Positions 5,047 through 55,737 of a DNA stretch of 64,000 bases are shown here, one piece after another. The stretch lies in assembly GCF_002865645.1 (NCBI RefSeq), contig NW_020194512.1, positions 372,001 through 436,000 of the forward strand, written 5' to 3'. Made by a program: the position numbers and the translations under genes. The notes below the pieces were generated by a model, which searched no databases, had not been told where the DNA came from, and saw nothing but the letters and a program-made list of their open reading frames with translations. The stretch's first letter is position 1, and every line of letters begins with the position of its first letter. The DNA comes from Hyaloscypha bicolor E. Taxonomy: Eukaryota > Ascomycota > Leotiomycetes > Helotiales > Hyaloscyphaceae.

Positions 5047-6510
5047 CTATACTATTTGGCAATCTCTAATTAATGCTGCATAATATAAAGGCGTAAGTTC
5101 TCGAGTATAGTACCGATCGATACTTAGTATTTCATGTCTACCGTGCGGCTCATATATTGTCCTGCCCCCATAATTCTTTACTATCCATGCCTTTCTATAG
5201 ATGGCAATATTTATTGGCACCCTATTTTGGATAAGTAATTCTGTAATATCCTGTCGATTAAATCTAACCGTATAATATAACGGTGTTATATTATTAATAT
5301 CTACTAAATTTGTTGGCGCACCGAGCATTAGAAGCTTCTTTACGATATCAGGTATGTAATTCATATTAATAATCGCATAGTATAAAAGACCCTTTAGCCG
5401 AATATTAATAGTTGTGGGGCTGGCGCCGTATCGTAGCAAGGAATGGATTGTTTCTATTTGGGCTTCTGCGATCGCATATGACAGAGGGGTCCGGCCACCG
5501 TTATCTTTCGAATCCAGGTTAATACGGCTTGTCGCCATTAGGAGCTTAACCACAGTCTGATGTCTCCCTTCAGCTACGTAAGACAGTGGCGTCCGGACAT
5601 ATTTCGCGTCTTTGAAATCAGGAACTACTCTGCCAGTATCGAGCAGCAGTTTGACGACGGCGTCGTGACCGTACATCGCAGCCAATACCAGCGGTGTCTC
5701 GGAGTCATTATCTTCAGGGTCCGGGTCGACACTGTCCTGGGCAAGAAGTAACTGGACGACCGCTGCGTATCCGAACATTGCAGCTCTGGACAGTGGCGTT
5801 CGGCTGAAATTATCTCTTGAGTCTGGGTTAACGCCATCCATAGTAAGAAGGAGCTTGACGGCGGATTCGTATCCGTTTCCTGTAGCATGCGACAACGGAG
5901 TTTGGCCTGAAATGTTCTTTGAGTCGAGGTCAGCAATGCCCTGGGCAGAGAGAAGTGCGATAATGGCCTTATGCCCACTTCTTACCGCCTATGACAGCGG
6001 TATTCGAAGGTCAGAATCTTTGAGGTCTAACTTATGACCACGTATAAGTAACTTTTTTATAGCGTCCTCGAGTCCAAGGTATGCTGCTAAATGAGATCCT
6101 GTTATATATCTTAGAAATTCTTGGCTGTAATTGGCATGTGATGGGTACTGCTTGGTAGCCATAAGCGCTTGAATAGAGGCTTCCACCTTTGAGTCGCTCT
6201 CGAGAAATTCCATTATCATTTGACTTGTTAAAGGAGCCTTGCGAGCATGGTGCCCCCAATTTCGTACCGCATAGTCATAAATTGCATTATCCCGTAGTCG
6301 TGCCTCAAACTCTTCATCCGTAGGACAAAGGCCGCTTTTAAAAGTATCGAATAAGAGATAGGTAACGCAAGTGTTCGCGATGTCCGTCTCTGCATCAGGG
6401 AACCAACGTTTTTGCGTTAGCTCGAAGTATTCCTGCATTGTGTAATGGACTAATCGAATAATCCCACTCTCCTCATCGATTGTAACTAACCCCAGGCATA
6501 CAGAGACCAT
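5047..6510 (-). pseudogene. Best-preserved ankyrin section of the NLR remnant
   Basis: Two long open stretches (6510-5989 and 5895-5047 plus the sequence between them) are separated by one in-frame stop at about 5987, after RIPLS. At least six ankyrin units are visible, each with TPLS/TPLx at the first helix and VVKLLL or similar at the second, spaced about 34-36 residues (for example TPLSRAAMFGYAAVVQLLLA). The section is less AT-shifted than the N-terminal half, so RIP either spread unevenly or hit only the part shared with other copies. Confidence 0.85.
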
Positions 6511-23091: not shown

Positions 23092-26000
23092 CAGGCAGGT
23101 CAATAAGCCAGTCAGTCAGCCATTAGCTCAGGTTTTTTAACAGCTAATTAGCTTATATAAAGTGGGTTAGCTGACTTACTTAGCTAATTCGGCTAATTAG
23201 CTGCTGATTAGTTGAAGATATAAATCTCAGAAAATTATATTTAAACTAGCTTCAAAATAATAGTATCCCCAAACGTTTCCATTATAATTACCCCCCTCCT
23301 CTGCCAGTTTTTTAAGTATTCGTAATGCCATAAGCTCTTTCCTAATAGTCTAGAACTCTCAGAAGTAGTTAGTTTCGTATAAGACGAAAATACTCGCTTG
23401 TACTCAGAGCTTATAGCTGGAATACTAAGAAAATTATATGCTATTTTAGTAAGATGAGACCATTTAGACTCCCGTGCTTTCCAGTACTCTATAACTCCCA
23501 AAAGATTAGTAGGGGGTTTAGCTAAATATAGGTAAAACTCGTCTTTTGTATAAGTAGGCCTCTTAGGACGTAATAAATTAGAAGGCACTATCTGATTTAG
23601 TATATTCTCTAGGTAAGATATCGTTTTTTCAGGCTCTGGGAACTGATTCGTTCGACCTAAAATACTATTATCCCTATACTATTTCTCCCAAAGCTTACAT
23701 TTCTTCGTCTTTGCCAAATTAAAAGTATACGCTTTCCCTAGTAATATCTAGTATTAATTAAATCAAGTAAACTTAAACCGAGAATATAAGACTATTAAAG
23801 CTATTTATACAAGAGAGTAATCTGTCTTCTTATACTATAATATTATAGTATTTTAAGCTAAAGTAATTAAGCTTTAAATACCGGGATATTTATTAAAATC
23901 TCTAGCTTTTGCCTTTTTTTCAAGCTTCTCAAAATAACTAAAAAGGAACTCAAAGACAGAAAATACCTCCTATAAAGTACTATATAAAGCCTTTCATACT
24001 TCGTCTTTTAGATTATAATTACCTTCCAAGTTCTTAGTTAATCAGAAAAGAGATTCAAGCTAATCTCTAATAATCTCAAAAGCCCTCTATTTAGCTATAG
24101 TAATATAGTCTTCTAAATAGATCTCTTAATTATCAGAATTATTAGAATCTCTCAAATTATTAGTATAGATATTTAGGGCCTTTTTAAGTTTAAGGGCTTT
24201 TCTAATTATCTAATATATTGAATTCTAATATATTCCCCTATCTAAAACAAGCTTCTATTACTTGCTTAAAGCGATTCCGGTATTAGTATTAATTTATAAC
24301 TTAGTAAAGATATCTATCCGCTTTCCTAAATTTATAATATATACTACCAAGTTATATAGCTTCCTAAGCTTTTCCCGCTATCTCTAAAGCTTTTAACGCT
24401 CTCCTGTACCTGCTTCCTTAAAGTCTTCTTTCTAGCTTGACTCGTCTTATCCAAATAAATAGGCTTCTATAATAAAGTTAAGAATATATCTTATATAGTA
24501 TAGTCTTTTCTAAATTAGATTAAAATCCATTTATTAGCTAAGCTCCTATAATATTATATTATTATTTTGGGTATTATTAAGTACAAAATAGCCCAAATTA
24601 TCTTTATTAATACCAAAATGTTAAAATAATAGCAAGATTACTATAGCTTAATCTAATAAAAGAAGTTAGTTATATAATCTCGGAAGGAAATTAAGGTCTG
24701 GCCAAAGCTCTCCTATTAGCTAGAAACGCTCGGGAACGCCCGAATCACGCTATACTACTTTTGTAAATTATTAATACTACTATATAAAAATCTATTTATA
24801 GTAATAGTAAAAATCCAGACTTACTAATACTACGTTTCCTATAATTAGGGAGCTCTAGTAACCTAATTAGGCGTATTACATTCTCTCCTTTATAATTTAC
24901 TATATATATAATAATACCCAAAATACTAATTTTCTTATACTTTAAGCCCTAGCTATTAAAAGTATAATATATTCGTAATTTTACTATTTTAATCTCTTCT
25001 TTAATTTCTGGCTTAAAATAATAAAATATCTCATTAATCCAGAACTTTATTATATTATAGGAAGATAATAGAGTATTTATAGCTTGCATATTAGCAATTT
25101 TGAAGGCATATTTTAGTCAGGGAGAAGCTATTTTATAAGACTTAATATTATTTATTATAATCTATTTAATAAATATATTTATAAATTCCTACTAACAGAA
25201 CGGGATTGCCTGCTTATAGCCTCTATTAACCGGCCCTGAAGCTTATAGGCCATTATTTCCATACTATGCTCTCTATATATCTCCTTAGTAATCAAGAAAG
25301 TAATAGGTAAGGAGATAATTTTTAGTATTTTTGAGAAAGTTACTATTATAATACCATTCTCGGCTTCTGGAAAATTCGGGATTATAGTAGCCTAAAAAAC
25401 TAATAAGTATATAATTACTATATAATAATAAAAAGTCATATAAAACTTATATACCTATATAGTAGGCTTATCTTTTTTACTTATATTAGTAAGAGTATAA
25501 CCAAGCTACCAAACCCATACTATTCTCTTCCGCTTAGTAGTACCTGTAATAATATGTTTTTTCAGAAGCCGTATAATTATAACTGCGTAATCATTATATA
25601 AAGGCTCTTCTGAAGTATATGGAGAGTAATTAGGGCGTTAATCTTCGGGGGAAGGCTTGTAAGGGTTATAGTTTTGATTATAAGTTAGTACCGGCTAATT
25701 ATACCGATCTCGTATGTCCTTCCTTTGCTCCCTAGGCGTACTGCCCATTATCTGGCTAAATACATTCGGAAGATTTGATAATGATTCAGAAGGTCTAATT
25801 AAGAGATTACAAGAGACTCGACTAGTAGGGGTGGATGCGGTATTCATTTTGATATTGATTAAGGAATTAAATACCAAGTATACGAGCTAAGGAGATTTTC
25901 AAGGCTAGAAGGCCTAGTAATTAAGGCTATAATTACCTAATTATCCTACTAATCCTCCCAAAAACTCCAATTATTATATATTTAAATGACTCCAAAATCG

Positions 26001-29360: not shown

Positions 29361-30385
29361 CTAGCGACTGTGTGACTCTTCCATGTCTAGTGTTTGTAGC
29401 GAGTAGTTATGAGGTTCCTGCCTTCGTGGCGTAAAGCCCCAAAAGTCATCTTCCCATGATTTCCGTACCTGCAACGTCTTCTTGAGCATTGATTTCTCTT
29501 CGTCTACCATTGCCCTAATATTGGGCGTATTGACCAACAAATGACGAATTTTGTCAACAATCATCTCTGACATCCGCATCAACCCAAAGATTTCCTCAAG
29601 AGATCTACTTTCTGCATCACTAGGCTCCCAGAGACTTGGGCTTCTGGTACCGTGTCCCAGGCGATCGTAATCAAAGGATATGTCTTCCGCCTCACTATGG
29701 AGCTTCTCGTATGTCTGGTGATAGAGACTATCGTAAAAGTACATGAACGTAGACATGACTTGGATCTCAAATCGTAATTCTGGGGGTCTGCTCATTGAGG
29801 ATTCAGGGTCGCGCGATCTTACCGCAAAATGGAGTGCGGTGTAAACAGGAAAGCCACTGGTGCTGCCCACTGGGTTCGAACGCGACATTGGATGTTGTTT
29901 GGTATCCAGGACGTCAAATGTCTGGGTAATTAATTTTTTGACCATCTTGAAGTCATTTTCACTACGCCATGCCAGGATAATTCTTGCGCCAACTAGATCC
30001 TTGATATCCGCGAAGATAGAAGCGTTATCTGTGTAGGGTCTATGCACAGGCGTGTCAGCTTTCATCTAGCAAAGATCGACGATGATGAGAGCGTGTAGTC
30101 GAGTTGGTTATTTCAAACAGACGATTATATTTAGTAGAGACTAATCAGTTCGTCTTGTGTGAGAGTTTCAATTATGAATCATTCTATAACTCACTTTGTC
30201 TTCGCCCTGTGATTCAACTTCCTCTCCAGTGACTCTGCCGTTTTAGTTCGACATTCCCAGAAATATTTGATGTTATCATGCGGCTTAAGCATGCCATCAC
30301 ATTCTCTCCTCAACTCTTCGCCGAGACGGTCGTAATATGGCTTGTCTCCCTCGAAGCCACGCACGAATCGCGTGATCAGATCCAT
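29361..30385 (-). CDS. Stand-alone RelA/SpoT-domain protein (possible nucleotide pyrophosphotransferase)
   Basis: I read two exons: 30385-30195 and 30039-29361, joined across a 155-bp intron with GTGAGT donor and GTGCATAG acceptor. The join keeps the frame and gives 289 residues. The synthetase fold motifs are all present: RTKTAESLERK (46-56, ATP-binding R/K/S/K), DLVGARI (78-84, metal-binding D and the following R), YTALH (130-134, guanine-stacking Y) and FEIQV (154-158, catalytic E). After the domain comes a helical region to about residue 260 and a short polar tail. Bacterial relatives transfer pyrophosphate from ATP to GDP/GTP or, in toxic small versions, to other acceptors; related domains occur in fungi alone or in front of receptor-like proteins. 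Product and substrate here are unknown. Base composition is normal and there is no sign of RIP. The gene is divergent from the CorA-like gene. Downstream of the ATG the frame is open throughout, so I regard it as intact. Confidence 0.85.
30040..30194 (-). other. Predicted intron of the RelA/SpoT-domain gene
   Basis: On the minus strand it starts GTGAGTTATAG after ACA AA and ends GTGCATAG before ACCCTACACAG. Without removal the first exon stops after one more codon. A second acceptor at 30066 (TTTGCTAG) would put a TGA directly after the junction, so the acceptor at 30040 is preferred. Confidence 0.75.
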
Positions 30386-38160: not shown

Positions 38161-39457
38161 TCACCCCGACCTCCGGCGCTTCTTTGTATTCTTGGACGTC
38201 TCCGAACGAGGCTTTAACTTGGTACTGTAATGTACTTGCAATGTCCCCTTGCTCCTCTCCGGGAAGCGTTCTGAAATCTCATCCCACGATAAACCGTCTC
38301 CTTTTAGTTGCAGTAGAAGTTCATCGTCTTCGGACGAAAATCGCGAATTCCTGACGGGTCTGCTTATAGCTTGCTCTTGAACAGACAATCGTTCCGAGTC
38401 TCTCCTGTCACTACTGCTAGAGACGCTCCTGGCAATGCCTCGTCTCTGGGATGTTCCCCTAGGTTTTGGTAGTAGGTCTTGAGAAAATGTGAGACAGTAT
38501 ACGACTTTCGATTCGATAGTTTTTAGTATCAAGTATCCACGGATAGGAATCTCTTCGCTCTCCTGGATACTGCCAGAGGCGCTGAGGGAATGAGTGGAAG
38601 TAGTTTCTATATCGTTATATCCTGTATCCTTCGCCCGCCTGGCCCGTTTCCGAAAATATGGTCGGTCTCGTATCTCAGAGGCAGCGGTGTTGCTCATATC
38701 GCTATAATCTTCGTCGTTATTATCGGCACCTCCATCATCAACCATTTCCTGGTCAATGTCGCGGATCTCTCGTTCCTGGCCCGGAGCCGCGAGTAGAGCG
38801 ACGGACTTGGGATCTTCGAGGTCGGTGGATCCGAGTGAGGCAGAAACGGTGCTAGCTATGCTAGCTAGTCCGGTGGGAGCTGGCGTACGGGATCACTTTC
38901 TGCGGACATCTCTAGTGGCGCCTCGTCGGCGGAGCTACTTTGGCAAGTGGTCGATTTCCTAGACCGACTGGTGGAGAGACGTCGCTGCTGGGCCCGGCTG
39001 TGGGGATTGAGTATTGTCAGGCTGGTCATCCCACAGCTTAGACATATTGCCGTCGAAGGTTGGAATGCCGCCGGAAACAGCGGACAACTTTGATCTCTTC
39101 GTAGAGTGGGTGTCGTCACCGCCCTCATCGCGTTCCTCAGTGGAGACGCTACACTCCCCATCCTCCAACTCCTTGGTAACATCGAGATTGACGTAGCTCG
39201 TGCATCCCTGCGTCATGTCGGTGTTTACCCGCAGTTTGCTGGCTCGGTGTGTGGCGGATTTATGGCCAAGGGAGGCCGATCCGGGACGATTAGCGGAGAG
39301 CCGAAGCTGGGCGTCATTGACTACGTCGTCGTTGCTCGTATTGCCGTCGTCTGGGTGGTCGGCGGCAAGACCACCACTTTCCTGACGGGTCTGCTCATAG
39401 CCCGTTCTTGCACAGGTAATCGTTCCGAGTCTCTCCTGTCACTGCTGCTAGAGACGC
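38161..39457 (-). pseudogene. Myb/SANT-like nuclear protein gene, frame-broken
   Basis: The 3' part (38745-38161, minus) is open and ends with a Myb/SANT-like helix-turn-helix, RNSRFSSEDDELLLQLKGDG then LSWDEISERFPERSKGTLQV, followed by a basic KNTKKRRRSG end. That arrangement suits a DNA-binding nuclear protein. Upstream coding signal continues in other frames: TDMTQGCTSYVNLDVTKELE and following acidic/polar sequence (39216-38959), then SSADEAPLEMSAESDPVRQL (about 38940-38865), then a stop cluster in CTAGCTAGCATAGCTAGC (38850-38868). At least two frame changes are needed, so I call it broken, though an unseen short intron could remove one. A 78-bp piece is present twice (38349-38426 and 39380-39457). 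Confidence 0.6.
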
Positions 39458-39463
39458 CCAGCT

Positions 39464-41060
39464 TCATCTTTCTTTATGGCTAGGCCTAAAAGAAACGTGC
39501 CTGCGCAAGACTATGCCAATATCGAAAGGCCCCAATTCAACCCAATTCTCCTCTAAATTCCGTATCTTATTATCCTTCCTCGCGGTCACATATATTGTAA
39601 GAACATATCCCAATACAGGCAGTGGCAGGCTAGCAACCCCAAGGTATGCCAGATTATGGTTTTTTTGGCCAAACCTCCGGCAATACCAATAGCACATAAC
39701 GCAGCGACAAGGAAAAAGACTGAGATTTCCCAGGATATTTTGAAACCTTCTTCGACATAAATTCCCCATCCTTTCAAGGGTGCACGATGCGTTTCCAAGA
39801 GTTCGAACTTCCTATTGACCTTTTTTGGCGTACTGTCAAATGCCCAATGTGGAATACACACATTTTTTGTTGTCCACCGCTGGCTGGAATAGTAGATGCT
39901 CCTCGAAAGCGCTCTCGTAAGATCCGAATTGTACACAGATACCAAGGGCGTGATTTATTGCCAGTTATCTGACTTTCGACCTCCACCAGGGACATAGAAT
40001 GGCCATTCCACCAGTGATCCATTAACATTTCAGACATAATTTCTGGGCCTTCTGGTTTCGGGACACTTGGAGAGTTGTAGCTCCATATTTGAGGTACTTG
40101 AGTTGGTGGTGGCCACTCCCATTCGTGGATCACTCCTTTCTCAGTCTCATGACTTCGGAACTGATATCTGTCAGGACACAACATAGATGATACGAGGCGG
40201 TAGACTTACATGGACAATGCGTATCTTTGTGACTGCTCTTAAACGTAGCTTCAGCAGCCATGGAGGTCTCTTCTGCTCATACTTTCTTCTCAGAGCATGA
40301 AACAGCTCTTTGTCTGTCAATCTTCTGGGAAGTTCCATGTGGGAAATAGACACAGTTGTTTTCTGGGCTGTACAGAGAAGCATCCAGCCACCTGTGAACA
40401 TATGGGGGACTGGTCTTCGAATAACCGATGGCGAGCTCGAGCTCCCAAGACTACTTGCTGTGCGACTTACTTGGACGAAGTAAATGCCTTTCAACCTTGT
40501 GAATACTGTTATTCTCCTCTCGCGCGCTTTGAGATACCTTTTCTTTATCTCCCTGAATAGCTGCTGATCGCAATTGATGGTTTTGGCCGGTGCACTTTTG
40601 GGATCTATCATAACAGGGTCCATATGAGAGAGGGGGGGGTTCCATGTGGATACAGAGGTGGAGAAATCTAACTTTGTCCTTGACCTCCTTAATCGGCTCT
40701 CCATCAGTGGATTCAAGTCCCACCTGGGAAATATCTTGGGTGTCATCCTGTCCACCTTGGCTCGAATTACGTGCAGCGGCACTCAAGTTCATACCTGCTT
40801 GTAAATTGCCTGGTGCACTTCGGGTTAATTCTCGATGATTTCCGGCATATCTTCTATGCCTACTCAAAGCTATGCTCTTCAATATTGAAAGTAACGTGCT
40901 TATCCCGCTTTCACGCCACGTGACAATTTCTGCCTTAATACCACTTGAGATCATTCGATCTGCAATAGTCTTGACAACTCTGCGTTCCGAGATAAAATCA
41001 TCATGAGACTGGCGACCGCAATGACAAGTCCATCGGATCCTAGAAACGTGTGGTGGCAAC
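39464..41060 (-). pseudogene. 3' half of the ankyrin/CxCG/membrane host gene, split by hAT
   Basis: Directly next to the hAT left end, the minus strand reads LPPHVSRIRWTCHCGRQSHD, with a CxCG motif followed by a DDF. It continues through a region seen in other fungal proteins (GGWMLLCTAQ, LTDKELFHALRRKYEQKRPP), then PDRYQFRSHETEKG, then GWGIYVEEGFKISW and two membrane segments (ISVFFLVAALCAIGIAGG and YLGVASLPLPVLGYVLTIYV). The frame changes at about 40500, 40190, 39850 and 39650, so the half is itself decayed. Homologous fungal proteins, as I remember them, are uncharacterised. Its 5' half lies 11.6 kb away at 52651-53614. Confidence 0.75.
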
Positions 41061-42010
41061 CAGTGTGTCAAATGAGTAGAGTAGAGTAGAGTAGTGGGTG
41101 CTACTCATACTCCACTCAACCAATTAGTACGCTACTTATACTCTACTCAATACTCAATGAGTAGGTACTTAAGTAACTTAAGTAGTCAGTCACGTGATCA
41201 CACACGTGATCGGAAAATTGTCGGACCGTGTGTGGCGTGGATTTAAGGTTAAGGCTAGCCTAATTAGGAGGGTGCTTTACCTAATTAGGTAGTACTATAC
41301 TTGCTAAGTGAGCCGAAGCTATAAGAACTTACTCGATTTTCCATATTACTTCTCTATATTATTAATTTAATTATTACTAATAATATACTTATAAATTAAG
41401 TTAAATTAGAAATTAGTACTATAGAGCTAAGAGAATATTTATAATTAATAGAATAGTAAGAAATATACTAGAAAATAAGAACTTTCTATAAAAAAGAGTA
41501 AATCTCCTTGATTTTCTACTCTTACTATACTTCAGAAATATATAATAAATTAACTATATACTCTATTAAAAAATATTCTATTATATATTTACTCTTCTAT
41601 ATTAATTATATCTAATAATATCCCAATTATCTCAATATATATTTAATATTTAATAAAATCAGGCCGATTTTACTTTAGAGCCTTTAAATAAGTAACCTTC
41701 TTTCTTTAAGTTTCAATACTTATTAAAGATCTTAGATTCTCCTAAGTCTAATCCCAAAGATCTCTCGGGCTATTAAACCATTACTATTTATTACTTATAT
41801 TAAGGATATATATAAGTTATATAAATCTTAATTTAATAATATTAAAACTAATAATTTAATAATAAAAAGTAATATAATTAAAGAGTTTATAAACCTACTA
41901 GTAATTATAATATATACTTTCGAAACTCATATAAAAATATTAATTTAAAGCTCTTAAAAGAAGAAATAGACCCTAGTAAGTTATTTATTTTTAAAAAGAT
42001 TTAATAATAT

Positions 42011-42308
42011 TATAAGGTATTTATTAGTAGGTAATAAGATAATAGAATAAATTAGTATATTATAAAACTATAGTATTAAATTCAGTATAGAACTAATCTC
42101 TATCTCTCTTATAAGGTCCAGGAAAGCCCCCTCTAAATAGGAGGCCCTAATAACATATATATAATTAGTAATTTATAAGCCTAATATATATAATATAAGT
42201 AGTAGTTAGTTATAGTATTAAAGGGCCGCCGATCTCCCTAATTAATATTCGTAATATCCGAGGTTTGTTATATGCTTTTAAGTTACATATAACCCTATAT
42301 ATATTATA
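42011..42308 (-). repeat. 3' LTR of the nested Gypsy element
   Basis: 298 bp. It matches 49525-49822 over its full length. The ends are tataagg and attata here; the other copy keeps TTACA, so the ancestral ends were TGTAA/TTACA. Purine-rich AAAGGGAAG lies on the coding strand just upstream (about 42318-42326) and may be the polypurine tract. Confidence 0.92.
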
Positions 42309-45300
42309 ACTATACTTCCCTTTATAGATCTTATTCCCAAGATCTATTAATTTATTCTAGTAAATATTTAATTAATTATTTATTTAATTAAGATAAACTT
42401 CTAGTATCTTGGGAGGTGGTTTTACTAATATAATCTGGATAATAGATATAAAAATTATCTAATTAGATTAGGACTAAGTAAGTAAGAAAAAAGGGTAATT
42501 ATATCCCAGATATAGGAACTAGCTAATAATTGCAATTTCGTTTGGGATCTGAGTATTTTAATTAGCTTAATCCAAAGTACTAAAATACTATTCTATAAAA
42601 TTAATACTACCTATTAGATCTCGTATTAGAATAATCTAAATAGCTATATAGAAAGAATTTAATAAATATTTATATAAGAAACTTATATAAATATTTCTGA
42701 GATCCTAAAGATTATTTATAGGCTCCTGGAAGTATATATTAATTAGTTATACTAAATTCTAATTAGGACTAGTACAAAAACTAGTAATTAATCTAGATAG
42801 TTCTCTATTTTTATAAAAGAACCTCTTTATATTACTATATACTCTTTTCCTTTCTAATAACTATATATATAATAACTTTTCTTATTATTACTTTCTAATC
42901 TCTTTTTCTGCCCTTTTCCAAGTCTTCTTTAATTACCTTTAATTAATTCTATAATATTTTCTTCTGGTTTTATTATTTACTAATATAATAATAAATATAA
43001 AAGTAACTTTACTATTTTCTTTCCTATTACTAGTAAATACTTGAAATATTTCAAGTATTTATTTATTAATTCCTTTATCTTATATATTATAATACCTAGT
43101 AAGAAAAATTATAACTATTATAATAAGAGTTCTAAATCTTATATATTAGTAAGTTCTTTAGTTTTAATATCTATTAAAGCTAATATAATTTCAGATTCCT
43201 TATTACTTATTAGAGGCTTATTAGTTCTAGGAAGATACTATTATAATCTTTAAGAAATTTCTTGAAATATATTCTAAATAGTATTATACTAATAAGAATA
43301 ATACTATTAATTGGGTTTTTAAAAACTAAAAGAATACTAATAAGCTTCGAAATTCTTCTTCCCGTTTTAATAAGGCAAAGAATAATATTATTTAAATTAG
43401 TATTCCAAAGATAAGTTCTTTCTAATATATTTAGATATTTACTAATTTCTTAAAGAAATACTATAAAGTCTATTTTTAAGATATTAATTTTATTACTAAG
43501 ATTATTATTAAGATTACTAAATAGTTTATTACTAGTATTTCAAGTACTAATAATATAATACTTATAGCTATTTAGAACCTGATTTTAGAAGTTCGGGCTT
43601 TTTATAAGATATATATAATAGTTATAAGTTCTTTATTTACTTCTTTTAATATCCTTAATACTAATATTATTATAGTATAACTATATTTTATTAAAAGATA
43701 AATAGATTCCGGAAAGTATTAACTAATTCTTTACTAAGTCCTAAATAGAACCGGTATTTAATATTCTTATTTTAGGAATTAGGAATTTATAAGAATTAGA
43801 GTTTATTTATTTAAGATATCTATAACTAATTTACTTATAATAAATCTTTCTTAATCCTAAACCTTTTTTTAATAATTTAAATATAATTCTTATAAGCCTT
43901 AATAAAACTCTAGAAAACCTTTATAAGTAAAAAAAATCCTAGAAAAAGAATATTTCTATTATTATTCCGGGCCTTTTTTAGCTATTTAGGTTCTTTCTTT
44001 CTTTTAAATAGTCTTTTTCTTAGTAATTCAGAATTCTTTTTAATCTTAAGAAATTATTAAAAGATAGTTTCGGATTCTAAACTATAGTTTTAGTTATATA
44101 ATTTCAGAAGTTTCTTGGAATTTTTAAGATTAGAAAAAATAGATAATTAGATATTATAATTTTTAGGCCAGGCTTTCTATTTAATTAAATATTATTATTC
44201 TTTACTTCTATTATTTTATTAGTAATTAATAATAGCTTCTATTTCCTATTCTTATTCTTTATTATTATTTACTAATTCCGGAAGTTCTCTAAAGAAATAT
44301 AAATATAACTCTTAATTCTTTTTTATTATATATTTTTTAAAGAAGAAAATATAGAAAGTTAAATATAAATAATTATATATATTTAGTAATTTTAATTTAT
44401 ATATTAAATTACTAATATATTTAAGAATCCTAAATAGACCTATAAATTTTAGTTTAAGTTTTCCTATCTTAAGCTTAATATTTTTTATTAATAGTATTAT
44501 CCAGATTTCTTTAGAATAGTATTTAGTTAACTAGTATTTATTATAATAGGTTTCCTAGTTATTTTATATATAATATTATAAATCCTTAAGCTTTTTCTAT
44601 TTTATTTTAAGGGTTTCTAGTCTCTTATATATAGCTAATACCTTTCCTATAATTCTATTTTCAGGATTCTATAGAAGCTAAAAATAGTATTTATAATATA
44701 TATAGAAAGATATATTCTATAAAACCTAATATTTTAAGTTATTATATATAAATTCTATAAAAAACAATTTCTTAAACTAGTTATTTTTTTGAATATTATA
44801 ATAATATCTTAGATAGTATTCTAGAATCTAATTTTGTCTTTCTATTTAATTATCTATTTAAGAATAGTAAGTTATATTTAAATACTATTTATATATTAAA
44901 TAGAAATAGAAAATAAACTAAAACTAGCTAATAAATACTATTTCTTAATTAGAAATAATTCTATTAGGGAAACTAAAGATTAAAAAAATATATTCCTATA
45001 TAATCTTAGTAAATTCTAGAGAATTAATAGTCTTATAATATATAATATATCTTATTATTTTAGAATACCAGTTAATAATTATAAAAATTATATTAAAATC
45101 GGGACTTTCTATCGGGTTCTTATATAGTAATAGACCTATAATAAAATTTATAGAAATCTCACTTTAGGATCTCTTAAACTATAATAAACTATTAAATAAA
45201 CTATATAGTAAATGCCTCTTTATCTTAATTCTTTAGTAAATATTATATTCTTAATAATAATTATAAATATTTCCTTCTATATTCTTCTAATATTAAGATT

Positions 45301-46479
45301 TTCTAAGAAGCTCGAGAGTTTTCTCTATTTTATAGTATTTAATTATTAAGTTATTATAATAAAGCTTTATAACTTCTTAATATAAAGCGGAATTATTAGG
45401 TATAATAATTCTAGAATAGTATCTAAATAAGCCCGAATTATTTTTCCAGATTTCTTTTCCTTTAGTATTTTTCTTACTAAACCTCTATTTTATAATATTC
45501 TAATATCGAGAATTATTTCTCTAAATTACCTAAATAATATCCAGAAGGGATTCAAATAAAGGAGCTAGTACTATAGCTCTTTTAGTAGCTATATATATCT
45601 ATATATAGGGAATTAGATATTTATAACTATTTAATTCAAAAACTCGAGAAACTAAAAAGTCTTTAGTTCTATTAAGTAATATAATTATAAATACCCCTAT
45701 TACTTTAGCTATAGTAATAGAGCTTTTAAAATATTTCCTTATATCTTATTTCTTAACTAATTCTATAATTAAAAGATCTATAAGATAATCTATTTATTTA
45801 TTTTATAATAAATATTTCTCTTTAGCTATTATAGATATAATAAATATTAAATAATACTTATTTTAAAGAGGGAACTTTTTAGATATTTATAAGGACCTCT
45901 AAATTATAATTATAAAAGCTTCTTTTAATTTATTTTAAAAGATTAAAAGCCAAGTTATATTAATAGGATCTTTTTTATAATTAAGTCTTTTACTAGGTTT
46001 ATTTACTAGATTTGAGGCGCCTCTATAATAAATAATATTAAAATTATATATTATAAGATATATTACCTAATATATTTAATAGCTTTCTAGATACTTTATT
46101 TCTATAAAATATTAGAGATTATTATAGTCTATAATAACCTCGATTATAAACCTGGATTTTTTAAGGTAATAGTACTAATACTTAAAGGCTTTAATAATTA
46201 TAAATAGCTTTCTATTATAGGTACTATAGTTATATTTAGTTCCAAAGAGTTTCCGGAACCAGAATATTACTAGATACTAGTATTTTTTCGGGCTATTACT
46301 AGAATTAACTTATTATAAAATAGTACTAGTAATTACGAATTTTAATATATTAGTTTTAATATAAATCTTCTTAGAAGAATTAAAATAAACCAGAATAGAT
46401 ATTATAATAAAAGCTTTTAGCTACTTTATTTATCTATATAAAGGAACCGGATTTCCGGCCCTTTTCTATTTCTTTTAAA

Positions 46480-47160
46480 AGATCTATTAAGCCTATAGTT
46501 ATCTGAGAGTAATAGTAAATAAACCTATAATAGAAATTAGTAAATCCAAGAAATACTTAAATATTATAAAATAATTCTGGTTCTAGCTATTTAATAATAT
46601 TATAAACCCGTTTAGAATCTATATAAATACCTTCTATTCTAATAAGAAAGCCTAAAAATTCGATTTCTTTAATATTAAACTTATATTTATTAAGTTTATA
46701 AAACAGGTTATTTTTATATAATCTAGTAAATACCTAGTAAATATAATTATAATATTTACTTTTATTTCGGAAATAAATAAGGATATTATCTAAATAAATA
46801 ACTATAAAATAATTCAGGAGTTCTATAAGTATAATATTAATATATATTTGAAATATAACTAGTATATTAGCTAGCCTAAAAAATATTATAAGATATTTAA
46901 AATAGCTATAATAGGTCCTAAAAGCCGTTTTCTATTTATATTCTTTATAAATTCTTACTTAATAATATATATCTTTAAGATCTAGCTTTATAAAAATCTT
47001 GGTTTCTTAAAGCTAATTAAGGGTCTTATTAATAAGAGGAAATAAATACCAATTCTTAATTATAACTTAATTAAATCTATAATAATTAATATAAAAGTAT
47101 AGTTTTCTATTCTTCTTAGGAATAAAAAAGATAGGTATTTTTACTAGACTTTTATTAGAC
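46480..47160 (-). pseudogene. Gypsy reverse transcriptase remnant
   Basis: The minus strand reads, with stops, PKKNRKLYFYINYYRFN, IKLDLKDIYY, IVIYLDNILIYFRNK (active-site D-D degraded to D-N, one G-to-A transition) and FLGFLIRIEGIYIDSKRV followed by VFLGFTNFYYRFI. This is the standard order of a Metaviridae reverse transcriptase. It is inactive. Confidence 0.88.
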
Positions 47161-49505
47161 CTTATTTAATATTTATAAAGTATATCCTATAAATATAGAT
47201 ATAATACTTCTAGTTAGGTCTCTAATAGATTATATAAAGGCCTATACGAGACCGTACTATTTGTATTAATAGAGTATTTAATACTACTAAGATTAGGAAG
47301 TTCCAAAGCTTTATTAGAGTTAAAAACCTCTAAGAAGTCTTTATATTTATTATTTAGAAGATAGATAGATATCTCTAAAGCCCCTTTCCGGAGGGTATTA
47401 ATTTACTATATTAAAAACTCCTATTTAGTATTACTAGAACTATATAATAAAGTAGAAACCTAGTAACTATTATAAATATATAAAGCCTATTATCTAGGGC
47501 AGTTATATTTACTTTTAGTTAAGAATAAGACTTGAAATACTAGTTTAAGATACCGGTTAAGCTTCTTACTAAACTCTTTTAATATTAGGATTTTAATATT
47601 ATTAGGCTATATAAGTATATATACTTATTATTTCTTAATATAGTCTATATATTATATAAGAATTACTTTATAGAATTTTATACCAAAAATAAGACTATAA
47701 GAGCCAATATTCTTATACTTATAGAACCGGAACTTAAAAGAATATATTTTACTATAATTATCTATAATAAATACCTTAAGATTATAAGTTTAATAGACCT
47801 TAAATCTATTTCTATAAAAGGTTATAAACTCTTAATTATATTTAGTTAAGGTAATAAAGTTCCGGCTTTAAATCCAATTATTATTAAGGAAATTATAATC
47901 TAATCCAATATTATTAAATCCTCTATATATCTCTAAGATATCTATTTCTAACTATATTAATCTTATATAAATAGTTATATAAAGTAATATACCTTTTTTA
48001 TTATAGCTAAAATTATTAATATTCAAGATTTGGCGTTTTCTTTTCTTTATTTCTTAGGAAAGTCTTCTCTAGAATACTTTTCTATAATAATAATATTAAT
48101 CTACTTCTATAAATACCTTAACTTTTCTATAGTTTTAGCCTTATTAGAGTTCTATTAAATTCATTTAATATATTTGAAATACTTTATATTTTCTAAGAAG
48201 TATTCTTTTTATTTATAAGTTTAATAAACTATACCTAAAATAGAACTAGTATTTTATTAAGGCCTTAAAAAAGCCGAAATACTATCTAAGGGTTTCTTAT
48301 ATAATTTTCAGAACTTATTCTTTCTTTTTTAATAGTTTTATAAATTAGAATTTACTAAATCAGAGTTCTTGGAAGTAAAATTACCCTTACTAGATTCTTC
48401 TGCCTTTACTTTCCTTAATTTGGAGTAAATAATATATTCTACTTTCTGAGTTTTCTTAAGCTACTCGGAAATAAATACTGCCTTATTTCCTAAGAGAATA
48501 AATATAAGTATCTAATAAGTCTTATAGTTAGATAAAATAGTATTAAGAGTCCGGATCCGGTTCTTTTTAGGATATAGGTCCTAGTTAACTTCGAAACTAA
48601 TTATCTAAATATATAATTCGGTAATTATCTTACTATTCTTCTAATAAAGATCTCAGAGCTCCTTAAAAGCATTTTATTAGTAGATTTGAGGTATTTAAAG
48701 TATATTAGCTAAATAGGCCTTAAATTACTTCTAATAGACCTTATATAATAGTAAACTTTACTTTATTATAGCCTCCTAAGTATTATAAGGTTCGTCCCTA
48801 AAGGTACTTATAATAGAGTTAATTCTAAAAAAGTATCTATTATAAGTCTAAGATTAGGTCCTAAAAACCGCTTTCTAGAAAGATATAAATATTTTCTATT
48901 TTTTAAGAGATTTTCTATAATATAAGTCAGGTATCCGGATCTTAAAAAGCTTCTTTTAGTCTAAATATATTTTCAGGATATTATATAATAGCTCCTAATA
49001 AATAGTATCGAGACTATTCTTAAAGCTTATTATATTAGGAAAGAAAGTGAATTCTAATTCCATTTCAGGAAGTTCCCTAATAGGAATTACTAAAGAAGAT
49101 AAAATAGATTTATAAATAGAATTTTTATAAGATATAATAAACTATAAGATATTCCTAAGGGTACCCTTATATTACTCTAATTATAGGATATATTAGTTAA
49201 TTATATCTACTAATTCTTGCTTTTATTAGAGTACTTTAATATTAGTATATAATCTCTATTCTATAGTTTAAGTAATAGTAATTTAAATATTAATTTCGGT
49301 ATCTTAATTATTACCAGAATTATTTCTATTATTATTACTGGCTTTCTGAGGCTCCTAAGGAGCCCTATTAAAAGTATTAGACAAGCCTTTACTATTACTT
49401 ATATTGGGATTAATCTAGTTAATTTCCTCTATAGGAATAGCTCCGGTAAGAGATTATATATTTTACAGATTTCGAAATATAATTATTTATTAAACTACCT
49501 CCTTT

Positions 49506-49524
49506 AAAGATAGAGAGATTAGTT
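49506..49524 (-). promoter_or_regulatory. Putative self-priming primer-binding site of the Gypsy element
   Basis: Directly after the 5' LTR the coding strand reads AACTAATCTCT (49524-49514). Inside the LTR the coding strand holds AGAGATTAGTT (49616-49606), its exact 11-base complement. No tRNA-like TGG site is seen. In Tf1/sushi elements the first 11 bases of the RNA fold back onto the binding site and prime synthesis; this geometry fits, with the RNA start at 49616 and a TATTTA-type box about 33 bases upstream. Confidence 0.6.
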
Positions 49525-49822
49525 TATAAGGTATTTATTAGTAGGTAATAAGATAATAGAATAAATTAGTATATTATAAAACTATAGTATTAAATTTAGT
49601 ATAGAACTAATCTCTATCTCTCTTATAAGGTCCAGGAAAGCCCCCTCTAAATAGGAGGCCCTAATAATATATATATAATTAGTAATTTATAAGCCTAATA
49701 TATATAATATAAGTAGTAATTAGTTATAGTATTAAAGGGCCGCCGATCTCTCTAATTAATACCTGTAATATCCGAGGTTTATTATATGCCTTTAAGTTAT
49801 ATATAACTCTATATATATTACA
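49525..49822 (-). repeat. 5' LTR of the nested Gypsy element
   Basis: 298 bp partner of 42011-42308. On the coding (minus) strand there is a TATTTAG box about 33 bases upstream of position 49616, the start I infer for the transcript from the self-priming arrangement described for the primer-binding site. Confidence 0.92.
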
Positions 49823-49879
49823 AATATATTAATTTCTAATTTTAGGAACTTTAGAAGACTCAAGTTAATAAACTATAAT

Positions 49880-52392
49880 TAATGTCTTTAATAGAGGTTC
49901 TAGTAATCCTATAAAGGAATTTAATATTAATTATTTTGAGAGAGTATTATTAGCTTTTATTATAGCTAATAATATTTCTTTTTAAGCTATTACTATTTCG
50001 AGTTTTAAAAAGCTATTAAATTATTTATATTAGTAAGTTTTTATTAAAATTAAGGGTTTTTATATTAAACTAATATATATATATATAGTAAAATACTATT
50101 TTTATATTTAAAGGTTCTTATAAATAAACTTACTTTAATTTATAATAATAATATTATTATAAAAAAAGAAGATTTATCTAAAAATATAACTTCTTAAGGA
50201 ATGTTCTCTTTAATTCCAGATACTTAGATAACTATAAATTCAGACGCTTACCTTAGAATTATATTATAAGTTAATAAGTTATTAATTAATAATTTTTAAA
50301 ACTTAGCTAATTTATTTTTAGGTATTATAACGGCAGGAATAAAGTAATAGAATAATACTTAAAGATTAATAATTTCTAATGTCCTATAGAATCTAAAGCT
50401 AAGGAGAGAAGAAGTGAGGTATAGTAGTGGATAAGTAGGTATAGCCAAGACTACTAAAACGCCGAGCTTTGGAAGCGAGCTTGGTTTGAACTATAGCTTG
50501 AAACCTTAGCTAAAACTAATCCCTTAGCTGAAACTATATCTGTATTAATTATATAATACTAGCCGTTACAGGCATTTTATAAATAAAGATTTTAAATTAA
50601 AATCTTATTTATTAGCTATAAAAGATTTATTAGATATATATTCTAGGGTATATATGAATTCGGTTTTAATAGAAGCTTTAAAATAATATAATATTAAATA
50701 TAATATTACTAAATAAGTAACTTTAATTTATTTTTATAAATAATTACTAATATATTTTATTTAGTATTACTCAAGATAATAATAGCTTAAATAATAGCTT
50801 ATTATAAGCTTTTATAAAGTATTATAATAAGGAAGGCATTAAATTTCAAGGAGATATTCCTTATATAGCTTATATATTAAATCTAGTAATTCAAGATATT
50901 TTAAAAGCTCTTATTAAGAATAATTATAATATCTCTTATTCTACGAATTTATATAAGTAAGAAATAGAAGAACTCGAAAATAGAGAAAAAGAAGAAGAAA
51001 TAGAATAAGTAATAAGTAAGTTTCTTATATAATTTATAAGAGATTTATTAATAAATTATAGATTTATTAATTTAGAGAAAGATTAGAAAGACTATTATAG
51101 GCCTTAAATATAACCAAGAAAACCGGAGATTATTAGAAGCTTAAATTAAAGCTTTTAATATAGAAAATGCTCGATTTCCTTAACTTAGTAAGTAATTAAT
51201 TAATACTAATTATTTATAGATTAAAAAACCTAATAGTCTTTAACTTATTATATATTAAAAGACTTTTTATATATATATAAAGCTATTAGGGTAGTTATTA
51301 ATAGCTCGAAATCTAAAGCTTTTAAAAACAAAAGTTTAGTTTTAACTAATATTGAAATTATTTATTTAAATAATATTTTAAATATAATTTCAATATTTAT
51401 TAAAGCTACTACTAAGCTATAAGCCGAAAAATATCCTACTATATATTATATTATACCTGAAGTATATAAAATATATAATAAACTTAAAAACTTTAAAAAG
51501 GAATTTAAAATAAGTTTATTTTTTAATTTTTTTTAATTATATTATTAATAAATATTATACTAATTTTTATTAGGACAAAACCTTCGAAAATGCTATTAAT
51601 AAGGATATAGCTAAGCTTAGAAAATATTATCCTAAAATAGGTATTTTAGATAATAAAAGTAAAGCTTTATATTTAGCTCTTATTCTCAATTCTCGAATTA
51701 AAAGAGAAGAACTAGCCGGAATTAGCTTAGATTCCGGTATAATAGCCGATATATATAATAGGCTTAAAACAGATTATAATATATAAGTATATACTTTTAT
51801 TTAATTTTTAAATAAATTACTAACTTTTAATTTTTAGTTATAAATATAATTATTTACTAGCTAATCCTTCCTCTAATAATACTAGTAGTAAGGATAGCGA
51901 AAGAGACAAAGATAAAATGGATATTTATATAAGTAATAATAAGGATAAAATAGAGAATGAATTAATTACTTATTTAGAAAAAAAGAAAATAGATAAAAAG
52001 TAAGTAAAATTTACTTTTAAATTTATTCAAGAAATACTTATTATTCCTTTATTATTTCTTTATTATTATTTTATATATAAGTACTAACTTAAGTAAAGAC
52101 TAGGCCCCTTAAGTATTAGAAGTCAAATAAAGCTAGATTTCCTATTTTAGCTTTAATAGCTAGAAAATACTTAGGAATTCTAGCTTCTTTGACTTCTAGT
52201 AAGAGATTCTTTTCTCAAGGGAACCTTATTATATCTAAACTAAGGAATAGACTTAATAAGGAAACCTTTGAGAAGATTATATGCCTTAAGAACTAGGGGT
52301 TATTTAAAGACAAGGAAGAGAAAGCAGAATACAAATTTATTAAAAGGATTTTAAGCGAGGAAAATCAGTTTTATATTAAAGAGAAGGCTTAG
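49880..52392 (+). pseudogene. hAT transposase remnant (family A)
   Basis: It reads on the plus strand with many stops. The N-terminal domain strings FNINYFERVLLAFIIANN are seen at about 49920-49980, before the solo LTR. The C-terminal dimerisation domain is well preserved at about 52130-52390: YWKSNKARFPILALIARKYL, then GILASLTSSKRFFSQGNLII, then SKLRNRLNKETFEKIICLKN, ending at the stop at 52390-52392. Upstream parts lie on the other side of the Gypsy insertion (41300-42010). Stops mostly sit where TGG or CAG would be expected. Confidence 0.85.
50326..50570. mobile_element. Solo LTR, 245 bp, inside the hAT transposase
   Basis: It begins TATAACGGCAGG (from TGTAACGGC) and ends CTAGCCGTTACA. 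The flanks are GGTAT (50321-50325) and GGCAT (50571-50575), a 5-bp duplication with one C-to-T change. It has the same end type as the solo LTR at 35976-36189. It interrupts the N-terminal part of the hAT coding region. Confidence 0.85.
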
Positions 52393-52650
52393 AATTAAGA
52401 ATCAAGTTAATATATATAGTACCTTAGTATAGATCTCCTTAAATATATTAATAGTTATTTATTATTTATTAAATAAAGTTAATTTTTATTCTTACACGTG
52501 ATTTTCACGTGATGAGTAATTAAACTACTTAAGTAGTCTACTCTACTCTACTTAAGCTTAGTCATAGAGGGGCTACTTATACTTTACTCAATACTCAATG
52601 AGTATCTACTTAAGTAACTTAAGTAGTTTGAGTATTCCTTTGACATACTA

Positions 52651-53614
52651 GTAGCAACTCTGAAGATAGGAATAATAATCGTATACTTTGAAATACATAT
52701 ACTAAAGAATTTCTGAGGCTAGAGATAATTGAAGAATTCCTAAGGATAGATCTTGCATCTGAAACAGAGACGTTAGTTAATAGAGTACTATTATTAAACG
52801 AAGGACCTGGTGGCTTCTTGACGACAATATCGTTTGAGCTAAGTGGCAATTCGCTGCTTAGGATCACAAGCAACTTAACTACTGATTCGTATCCGGCTTT
52901 AGTGGCCAGGTGCAACGGGGTCTTGCCGTTATTATTAGCCAAATTGACTGACTCTGCAGCTCCTTTTTTTAAGAGCAACTTGACTATTAATTCGTGTCCA
53001 GCTTCAGTAGCCAGGTGCAATGGGGTCTTGCCATCATTATTAGCTGAGTTGACTTTCCCACTCTCATTATTCCCAGCTACTGCCTTATCAGGAGCCGTCC
53101 GCCTATCCTTGTCTTGCGCCTGGATATTTGCCCCGCGGTCAAGGAGCTCTCGAATAGCTTCGGGCGAGTCTGATTATACTACTACGTGTAGTAAAGTTTG
53201 TCCTTCTAGGAGATAAATATTAATCAGACATCTGTATTCCAAGGTTTTGTTGAATTCGTTCTAGTCTCCAGTCAGTATATGTTTTCTTAGATCCGATTGG
53301 AGTATATGATAATCTTCTAGCACCTCCTTTAAGAATGCCCCAAGTTCTTTACCAATCTATTACTTTGCCTTTTCTAATAGCGACTTTCCTCCAGCGTCGT
53401 GTTTCATTATACTTGTACCATTAAAGCCCAGAAGCCTTATTACCGGTTTCTACTGTCTCCAAATAGCCAAATGCAAAGGCGTATCTCCATACTCATTTGT
53501 TTTATTGACATTTTCACTAACTTCGAGTAAGCGCTCTATGCGTTCGACATCTCCCTCCTTTGCGGCAATATGTAACCTTCGCTGTTCGTCGAAACGTATG
53601 TTTGCGGGAGGCAT
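52651..53614 (-). pseudogene. 5' half of the split ankyrin host gene
   Basis: It starts MPPANIRFDEQRRLHIAAKE at 53614 on the minus strand. At least four ankyrin units follow (GDTPLHLAIW, QTLLHVVV, GKTPLHLATEAGHELIVKLL, GKTPLHLATKAGYESVVKLL). Then comes a serine/asparagine-rich linker ending LLFLSSEL right at the hAT insertion. In-frame stops occur at about 53447, 53370, 53264 and 53178; the composition is otherwise normal, so damage is light compared with the transposons. The frame at the breakpoint continues without shift into LPPHVSRIRWTCHCG at 41060. Confidence 0.8.
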
Positions 53615-54633
53615 TATTTGAAGTGGATTCGGACTCTCTGTATGATTAGGATGCAGTATTGGGTGATTGTTGGCGTATAACTTACGGCTGCTAAGCTAGG
53701 CTTGATGTATGAACGGGAATAACGCTCTAGGAAGCAGGCTGAGGTTATTTGTAACTGCTATTGACTTGGATTTTTCTCGAACCGAATTAGACTGCGTGCT
53801 TTTAGCTACTAATGTATCTCATTACATCTTTGACCAAATGAAAGAGGTAACTTAAAAAGATAACAGCAAACACGGCTAGACCTCGGAGCGGGACACATCG
53901 GAGAAACCTACCCTTGTACTGCCCACGGAGATTAAACGAGTTCGGCAACACACTCACAATACCCGCTCCATTGAGCACCGTACTCAACACGTCTAACCGA
54001 AACTACCAAGCGATACTCACGACGGAACCACTCGACACCGCCAATATCGTCGACGTCCCTACCGACTTATCCACTCCCTTCGACTACCTGACGAACAGCG
54101 ACACCGACGCGGGACAACACCGACCTGTGCAGCGCCCGTCAGTGGGCATAGTACTGCAAGGATACCGCATGCCCCAAGTACTGGAGCGCCTGGTCCTGCA
54201 TCTGTACGAGACGGCTGGTACACCGCGCGAATGTACGGACACACACACGGGTGGGACGTCGCGAGCTGGCGAGGGAGTGGAGAGCCAAGACGGATTAGGA
54301 GAAAAAAGAACCGAAGGAGCCCAAGCCTGCTCTGGGACAGAATGGTATTGCGTCGAGCAACGAGTAGGCTGTGGGGGTATAGAGTTTTCAGACGAGATAT
54401 GCTATCGTCTTGTTCGCGAGATCGTTACGTTTGGTAACAGCGGAATCGAAGGCGGGAATGCCTTCATGCGCGCGAAAGACTACTCGTGGACAATTGGCAG
54501 GAGGTGATTCATTGCTACTTCCCTTCCATTACGCCGAGAATATGACGAAAACTAACTCTAACGATAGTAAGCCTCAAGAGACCCATTCGAACTGAAGAAC
54601 AGAGCAAAGATTTTCAATTCCCCTTGCAGCAAT
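53615..54633. other. Normal-composition region of unclear coding content
   Basis: Upstream of the ankyrin gene. A 197-codon plus frame (53914-54507) and several minus frames overlap it, for example 53990-53802 with a membrane-like GLAVFAVIFLSYLFHLV. Neither set is recognised, and the long plus frame has unusual composition. The promoter of the ankyrin gene should lie in the first few hundred bases. Confidence 0.35.
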
Positions 54634-54955: not shown

Positions 54956-55305
54956 CTGCACCTCAGAGTGATTTCGTCTGAAGTATTGTACCTTGATATA
55001 CTGTAAGATGACGTACGCGGTTTATTTATACTTCAAGCCCGAGTACTCTCAGCTGTAGTACTATAACTGAGAGTACGTCAGCTAGCAAGACTGCACCTGA
55101 GAGTACTATAGGATAACGTATACCGTTTATTTATACTTTAAGCCCGAGTACTCTCAGCTGTAGTACTATAACTGAGAGTACGTCAGCTAGCAAGACTGCA
55201 CCTGAGAGTACTATAGGATAACGTATACCGTTTATTTATACTTTAAGCCCGAGTACTCTCAGCTGTAGTACTATAACTGAGAGTACGTCAGCTTGCAAGA
55301 CTGCA
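54956..55305. repeat. 105-bp tandem repeat with internal hairpins
   Basis: CTGCACCT recurs at 54956, 55091, 55196 and 55301. The last two full units (55091-55195 and 55196-55300) are 105 bp and differ at one base; the first, of 135 bp, is diverged in its 5' part. Each unit holds GTACTCTCAG and CTGAGAGTAC as an inverted pair about 15 bases apart. The recent amplification shows no RIP. Confidence 0.9.
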
Positions 55306-55737
55306 CCTCCGGTTTTCTCTATGAACCTTGCTTTTCAGTTACATAGGTAATTAAGATATACTCGGAACAATTATCTTTATACGTAGTGTGATATTCTTGT
55401 TAATCTATACTAATAATTCCGGCGATAGTCTTCTACGGTAGTAGTATAGGCGTCTCTGTCACGCCATGTAACGTCAATAATGGTGGAGTAAGCTCCCTTA
55501 AAGAAGCTGTTCGGCTGGGCGACTTTTCCTTGTTTCTTCTTATGGTTTTCCGTATAGTGGTTCGTTCTCTATGGAACTGCCAGTATATTTTCTCTACAGT
55601 TCTCCAAGGAAGCTATAGTTTTACTCACAGGGTGGTTCGTGGAATCGTTGCACCGCATTTTGTGTGATTTCCAGGTTTGCCCGTCTGGGAGGTCGTGCTT
55701 GAGGGGCCGAATTGGGTCCCAAGGCGCTGGCGCTTGA
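55306..55737. other. Spacer without recognised gene
   Basis: Normal composition; short frames only. Nothing supported. Confidence 0.4.

What the first reader, a model, noticed from the sequence alone, without database searches (positions are those of the whole stretch)
39464..53614. One host gene split by a nested transposon, with an in-frame scar-free join
The minus-strand ankyrin frame ending LLFLSSEL at 52651 and the minus-strand frame starting LPPHVSRIRWTCHCG at 41060 are separated by a hAT element with an 8-bp duplication. Collapsing the two copies of GTRGCAAC to one joins both frames without a shift. This reveals a host gene architecture (ankyrins, CxCG region, two membrane helices) that ordinary annotation would report as two unrelated fragments 11.6 kb apart. 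Both halves also carry stops or frame shifts, so decay went on after or before the insertion.
Basis: partly seen in the sequence, partly recalled or inferred. Interest (0 to 1): 0.8.

Follow-up and report, generated by a model that had tools for sequence, protein, structure and literature searches.

The report
Transposon-split fungal ankyrin pseudogene
A fungal ankyrin-repeat gene was cut in two by a jumping gene that was itself later hit by a second one, and uninterrupted matching proteins in relatives show the two halves really belong together; this is a clear case of an ordinary process.

Summary
Confirmed, with corrections. An 11,590-bp hAT element (41061-52650) with CAGTGTGTCAAA/TAGTATGTCAAA ends and an 8-bp target duplication (GTGGCAAC/GTAGCAAC) lies inside one minus-strand gene. 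A 7,812-bp LTR retroelement (42011-49822) is nested in it. All ten homologous proteins found run straight across the junction; six carry precomputed Pfam ankyrin matches. The closest, P0008, also shares an unusual downstream tail that the other nine lack, so it is very probably the same locus without the insert. Decay is lopsided. The ankyrin half has five stop codons and an excess of C>T/G>A-type changes; the other half is 97-99% identical to P0008 and has no stop in its first 140 codons. The mismatch between the two target copies is itself such a change. Corrections: part of the supposed frame shifting in the left half is probably intron, and the window's tail is not the membrane tail of P0002 and P0009. 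Kind: a known process, well documented here.

The parts
52659..53614 (-). 5' half of the broken host gene: ATG at 53614, ankyrin repeats, linker ending LFLSSEL; five stop codons
   Evidence: Pfam Ank E 1.8e-32 with stops masked; aligns with P0005 from its first residue and P0003 from its fourth, and with P0001/P0007/P0008 up to the junction
52651..52658 (.). right copy of the 8-bp target duplication, GTAGCAAC
   Evidence: differs from the left copy by one transition, C>T in CpA context on the minus strand
41061..52650 (+). hAT element, 11,590 bp with its insert, 3,773 bp without; ends CAGTGTGTCAAA and TTTGACATACTA
   Evidence: hAT dimerisation domain
52099..52293 (+). hAT C-terminal dimerisation domain (PF05699), one TAG inside
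   Evidence: (C1:424099-424293)
42011..49822 (-). LTR retroelement nested in the hAT; LTRs 42011-42308 and 49525-49822 (298 bp, 12 differences, all transitions); 5-bp duplication AATAT at 42006-42010 and 49823-49827
   Evidence: reverse transcriptase about 46647-47039, RNase H about 46142-46408, Tf2-like SH3 about 44330-44473 (below its cut-off), all on the minus strand
41053..41060 (.). left copy of the 8-bp target duplication, GTGGCAAC
40471..41059 (-). 3' half of the broken host gene: LPPHVSRIRWTCHCG module to GIYFVQ; one frame change in a C run near 40636
   Evidence: 98.6% identity over 140 aa to P0008; 5 homologues of 225 candidates
39464..40470 (-). downstream tail, of the ten homologues shared only with P0008; holds an LLC...DKELF...IRIVH stretch weakly similar to the preceding module and, in another frame, a hydrophobic end (by eye)
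   Evidence: one match each in the own-genome searches, the window itself

Best explanation
A hAT DNA transposon inserted into the coding region of an ankyrin-repeat gene and duplicated 8 bp. A Ty3/gypsy-like LTR retroelement inserted into that hAT. Repeat-induced point mutation (RIP) reached the repeats and spilled over the right-hand border into the ankyrin half, giving stop codons and C>T/G>A-type changes for up to about 1 kb and changing one base of the right target copy; the left half was almost spared. Shown: element ends, target duplications, frame-keeping join, continuous homologues, direction of change inferred from codons. Inferred: RIP as the agent, leakage as its route, the order of events, loss of function.
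For: Ends and 8-bp duplication. Same end family with 8-bp duplications: of the 22 non-window loci fetched with these ends, 19 pair up at two or fewer mismatches, 17 of them perfectly; one element was fetched twice, so 18 of 21 distinct. Frame-keeping join. Ten of ten homologues continuous at the junction. P0008 shares junction and tail: 53/60 identical on the ankyrin side, 283/290 on the other (Fisher p 0.004); all 7 ankyrin-side changes are C>T/G>A-type, against 4 of 7 on the other side. Against P0007, 17 RIP-direction and 3 reverse changes in 160 aa of the ankyrin half, 5 and 3 in 198 aa of the other. Against P0001, 17 and 2 in 159 aa, and 8 and 4 in 197 aa. Four of five stops stand at Q or W in P0003 and P0005. 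In five comparisons among homologues, linker and module differ at rates that are not significantly unequal (p 0.15 to 1.0). Nested LTR element with its own 5-bp duplication.
Against: The empty site is known from protein only; no DNA of P0008's contig could be fetched. P0008's first seven residues do not match the ankyrin side, so its own upstream part may differ or be broken. Ancestral codons were inferred by minimal change, not seen. One stop (53452, S in P0003 and P0005) is not RIP-type. A linker difference of about one in eight also occurs between P0001 and P0008 (7 of 58), so the amount of change alone is not unusual; the contrast with the left half and the direction carry the argument. 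The left half against P0001 also leans to the RIP direction (8 to 4), against P0004 strongly the other way (9 to 25 over both left pieces). TpA/ApT falls from 1.43 to 1.0 between 52600 and 53400 but is 1.3-1.5 again at 53800-54399, outside the gene. Of the 12 LTR differences only 5 lie in CpA/TpG context. No RIP gene was looked for.
Confidence: 0.9

Rival explanations
1. Two separate genes lie on either side of an unrelated repeat block, and the frame-keeping join is a coincidence.
For: The gap is 11.6 kb of AT-rich DNA; the module also occurs without a Pfam ankyrin match, in P0010, and next to TPR repeats in L037.
Against: Ten of ten homologues are continuous at the exact join; P0008 shares both sides of the junction; the target duplication sits exactly at the element ends.
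Confidence: 0.02
2. The gene was already a decayed pseudogene before the hAT inserted, so the insertion broke nothing.
For: The ankyrin half has five stops, one of them not RIP-like; a frame change also lies in the left half; P0008's own upstream part looks different.
Against: The right target copy carries a change that the left copy lacks, so mutation of that kind went on after insertion; the left half next to the junction has no stop in 140 codons and is 98.6% identical to P0008.
Confidence: 0.15
3. The ankyrin-half changes come from ordinary drift or from RIP of the ankyrin repeats themselves, not from leakage out of the transposon.
For: Two ankyrin units are 84% identical over 81 nt; stops lie up to 800 bp from the element; P0001 and P0008 differ as much in the linker (7 of 58) as the window and P0008 do (7 of 60).
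Against: All 7 changes against P0008 in the non-repeat linker beside the junction are C>T/G>A-type; TpA/ApT is 1.08 over the ankyrin half and 0.66 over the left half.
Confidence: 0.2

Closest known systems
hAT superfamily DNA transposons
   Same: 8-bp target duplication, short inverted ends beginning CAG, PF05699 dimerisation domain
   Different: transposase reading interrupted by stops; carries a nested LTR element; the other paired copies fetched with these ends are 149-946 bp, hence non-autonomous
RIP leakage into single-copy genes next to repeats (Leptosphaeria maculans, Neurospora crassa; PMC2973834, passages seen)
   Same: C>T/G>A-type changes and stops in single-copy coding sequence beside an AT-rich repeat, over up to about 1 kb; the paper cites at least 930 bp in N. 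crassa
   Different: one-sided here; nothing marks the gene as an effector; shown from inferred codons, not allele DNA
Fungal ANK/TPR repeat proteins of the NLR kind with highly similar repeats (PMC4986451, passages including part of the abstract seen)
   Same: P0003 has near-identical ankyrin units and repeat number differs among relatives (by eye); the same C-terminal module follows TPR repeats in L037
   Different: no NACHT or NB-ARC domain among the Pfam hits of the window pieces or of P0001, P0002, P0003, P0009 and P0010; membership not claimed
Aspergillus felis hypothetical protein (P0009, 716 aa)
   Same: ankyrins (Ank_2 E 1.9e-51), CxCG module and a hydrophobic C-terminus (by eye) in one protein
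   Different: 42% identity to P0002; uninterrupted; its C-terminus matches P0002's and not the window's tail

Membership tests
hAT transposon | 8-bp target site duplication | tested here: met
   GTGGCAAC/GTAGCAAC, one transition; 17 of 22 non-window loci with these ends have perfect 8-bp copies, 2 more with one or two mismatches
hAT transposon | short terminal inverted repeats | tested here: met
   12 bp, two transitions between the ends
hAT transposon | hAT dimerisation domain PF05699 | tested here: met
   E 1.1e-12 in the genome search, 2.7e-13 with stops masked
hAT transposon | further transposase domains | tested here: not met
   no other Pfam hit in the three forward frames of 50400-52650; the part left of the LTR element, 49828-50399 and the minus frames were not scanned; the frame is decayed, so this speaks to activity, not origin
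Ty3/gypsy LTR retrotransposon | two LTRs with short target duplication | tested here: met
   298-bp LTRs, AATAT on both sides
Ty3/gypsy LTR retrotransposon | order RT, RNase H, integrase | tested here: inconclusive
   RT above cut-off, RNase H one hit above and one below, Tf2-like SH3 below cut-off, in that order on the minus strand; no integrase hit in six frames
RIP-affected DNA | directional C>T/G>A change, raised TpA/ApT | tested here: met
   TpA/ApT 1.33-1.40 and GC 0.21-0.25 in the elements, 1.08 in the ankyrin half, 0.66 in the left half; 17 against 3 changes versus P0007; but a ratio of 1.3-1.5 also at 53800-54399 in GC-richer DNA
Fungal NLR | central NACHT or NB-ARC domain | tested here: not met
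   only ankyrin families in the 5' half, nothing in the 3' pieces

The most novel reading that the evidence does not exclude
The CxCG plus two-helix end is an undescribed membrane-anchoring C-terminal module that fungi attach to ankyrin or TPR arrays, possibly for non-self recognition. The transposon-split copy would then be a null allele still segregating against intact alleles, with RIP spreading out of a nested element on one side only.
Probability: 0.25. Interest if true: 0.5.

Novelty: new member of a known kind. Interest (0 to 1): 0.3.

Why it matters
It is a compact stack of events: gene, hAT, LTR element, point mutation. The target duplication works as an internal marker of order, because only one of its two copies mutated. 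Ordinary annotation would lose the gene; the own-genome searches found no other close copy of the module or linker, so this genome has apparently lost it. It also points to a fungal C-terminal module without a Pfam hit that occurs behind both ankyrin and TPR arrays.

Tried and rejected
Pfam on the two left-half pieces gave no family. A protein search with the downstream tail (residues 52-140 of the query) gave none at E <= 1 among 120 candidates; P0008, which has the tail, is 361 aa and falls just under that search's length range. The tail's similarity to the preceding module is weak: 13, 14 and 21 of 2000 shuffles reach the score for three modules, 845 of 2000 for P0009's, so I do not claim a domain duplication. 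The structure model of P0002 has mean pLDDT 40, so no fold search was made. Rfam found nothing in the window. In one search my hAT reading was in the wrong frame and gave no hit; one search corrected this. Full-length comparison of P0001 with the ankyrin half (58.5%) mixes non-corresponding repeats, so only the corresponding part was used for direction counts. Paper searches: no listed title or abstract start described this locus; that covers only this library and these terms.

Full report
The window lies in contig C1 (372001-436000) of an unnamed 82-Mb genome in 76 contigs. It is fungal by its homologues; the nearest named relative of the gene is from Rhexocercosporidium (P0002), so a Leotiomycete is likely (placement of that genus recalled) but not shown.

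Element. On the + strand GTGGCAAC (41053-41060) is followed by CAGTGTGTCAAA..., and ...TTTGACATACTA (to 52650) is followed by GTAGCAAC (52651-52658). The hAT dimerisation domain is at about 52099-52293 on the + strand. Related ends are abundant: 251 sites match the 26-base end pattern with up to 3 mismatches, none match the reversed control; some of the two-mismatch sites listed have a slightly different end. Of the 22 non-window loci fetched with such ends, 19 pair with an inverted right end and an 8-bp copy at two or fewer mismatches, 17 of them perfectly; L021 and L033 are the same element, so 18 of 21 distinct. They are 149-946 bp long, so non-autonomous. The other loci scanned gave no pair: L001-L008 with hAT domains, L009 and L010 with the gene module, and L011 and L023, which are the window's own end; their flanks are short.

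Nested element. Two 298-bp LTRs (42011-42308, 49525-49822) start TATAAGG and are flanked by AATAT on both outer sides. They differ at 12 positions, all transitions, 5 of them in CpA/TpG context. Reverse transcriptase, RNase H and a sub-threshold Tf2-like SH3 domain are found on the minus strand with stops masked, so it is Ty3/gypsy-like; no integrase domain was found in six frames. Without this insert and its 5-bp duplication the hAT is 3,773 bp.

Host gene. The minus strand reads ankyrins from an ATG at 53614 down to the right target copy and continues at 41060. Either target copy keeps the frame when 45 nt on each side are joined. The left-half search returned 5 proteins among 225 candidates; the P0002 module search returned 8 among 4510, three of them already known: ten distinct proteins in all. 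All ten are continuous across the junction; being predicted open frames, interrupted copies would be missed. P0001, P0003, P0004, P0005, P0007 and P0009 carry precomputed ankyrin Pfam matches; P0002 has a weak one; P0006 shows one ankyrin-like stretch by eye; P0008 starts after the repeats; P0010 has no Pfam hit. In its own genome the CxCG module has one distant relative (29%, E 1.6e-5), directly downstream of an open frame of TPR repeats (TPR_10 E 4.3e-91). The linker and the tail match only the window itself.

The insertion-free allele. P0008 (361 aa on a 16,029-base contig, source jgi) matches the window across the junction and also through the tail VSRTASS...IRIVH, which none of the other nine has. 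It is therefore very probably the same locus. Only its protein is available here, and its first seven residues do not match the ankyrin side.

One-sided decay. Against P0008 the ankyrin side is 53/60 identical and the other side 138/140 and 145/150 (53/60 against 283/290, Fisher p 0.004). All seven ankyrin-side changes are in the C>T/G>A direction; by eye on the contexts printed, five of the seven would be in CpA/TpG context. On the other side 4 are in that direction, 2 reverse and 1 other. Against P0007 the ankyrin half has 17 such, 3 reverse, 1 ambiguous and 3 other changes in 160 aa; the left half has 5, 3, 1 ambiguous and 2 other in 198 aa. Against P0001 it is 17, 2 and 4 other in 159 aa, and 8, 4 and 2 other in 197 aa; against P0006 4, 0 and 2 other in 30 aa, and 9, 8 and 8 other in 198 aa. 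Against the more distant P0003 and P0005 the excess over the whole ankyrin half is weaker (RIP-direction 34 and 45, reverse 21 and 22, ambiguous not counted), and P0004's short match leans the same way (6 and 3); the left half against P0004 leans the other way (9 and 25 over both pieces). Control: in five comparisons among P0001, P0006, P0007 and P0008 themselves, linker and module do not differ significantly in rate (p 0.15 to 1.0), but P0001 and P0008 differ at 7 of 58 linker positions, as much as the window and P0008 do. So the contrast between halves and the direction, not the amount alone, make the case. Of the five stops, two stand at Q and two at W in P0003 and P0005; one stands at S and is not RIP-like. 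TpA/ApT is 1.33-1.40 in the elements, 1.08 in the ankyrin half and 0.66 in the left half. In 200-base steps it falls from 1.43 to 1.0 between 52600 and 53400, but is 1.3-1.5 again at 53800-54399 beyond the gene, which the leakage idea does not explain by itself. RIP leakage into single-copy neighbours is known: PMC2973834 (passages seen) describes it in L. maculans and cites at least 930 bp in N. crassa.

Order of events. At insertion both target copies were identical (a property of transposon target duplications). Homologues read P at this codon, which fits GTTGCCAC (minus strand) as the ancestral form. The right copy now reads GTTGCTAC, a C>T in CpA context. So mutation of this kind went on after insertion, on the same side as the decayed half. 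Whether some of the damage came before insertion cannot be told without allele DNA. That the LTR element came after the hAT follows from the nesting.

The join is right. The left half is less broken than stated: no stop in 140 codons, one frame change in a C run near 40636 that may be real or an assembly error, and a donor-like GTAAGT after GIYFVQ. P0001, P0003, P0004, P0006, P0007 and P0010 end 7 to 24 residues after GIYFVQ with a VS start, as expected for an intron read by an intron-blind gene caller (my inference). The two C-terminal hydrophobic helices of homologues (P0002, P0009; by eye, and helices 404-428 and 437-472 in a low-confidence model) are not in the collinear position here; the window and P0008 have a different tail.

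Function. By architecture the intact protein would be an ankyrin-repeat protein with a membrane-anchored C-terminus, perhaps in recognition, as repeat-bearing fungal proteins of the NLR kind are (PMC4986451, passages seen). This is inference only; no NACHT or NB-ARC was found in the pieces, and the structure model was too poor to use. The copy in this window is very probably non-functional as a whole.

Noticed in passing
window 5047-6510 (-): A second ankyrin gene fragment (282 aa, Ank_2 E 2.7e-36) with a neighbouring ORF weakly matching the HetE-N domain (E 0.006, below the cut-off): possibly another NLR-like gene beside AT-rich blocks.
   Followed up: partly
window 23304-23504 (-): A second hAT dimerisation domain without stops (E 1e-7) in the other AT-rich block of the window.
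   Followed up: no
L037:3141-6005 (-): Own-genome open frames with eight TPR_10 stretches followed by the same CxCG module and a hydrophobic C-terminal frame; likely one spliced gene.
   Followed up: partly
window 38348-38426 and 39379-39457: 79-nt direct repeat, 90% identical, 1,031 bp apart, just downstream of the host gene; the first copy lies in an ORF (38161-38745, -) with a Myb-like domain.
   Followed up: no
window 54999-55313: Three tandem copies of a 105-nt unit (89-93% identical to the first) upstream of the host gene, with a high TpA/ApT ratio.
   Followed up: no
window 53800-54399: TpA/ApT is 1.3-1.5 in DNA of 46-59% GC upstream of the host gene, away from the transposon; not explained.
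   Followed up: no
window 29361-30065 (-): ORF of 234 aa with a RelA/SpoT-like match just under the Pfam cut-off (24.9 against 27 bits).
   Followed up: no
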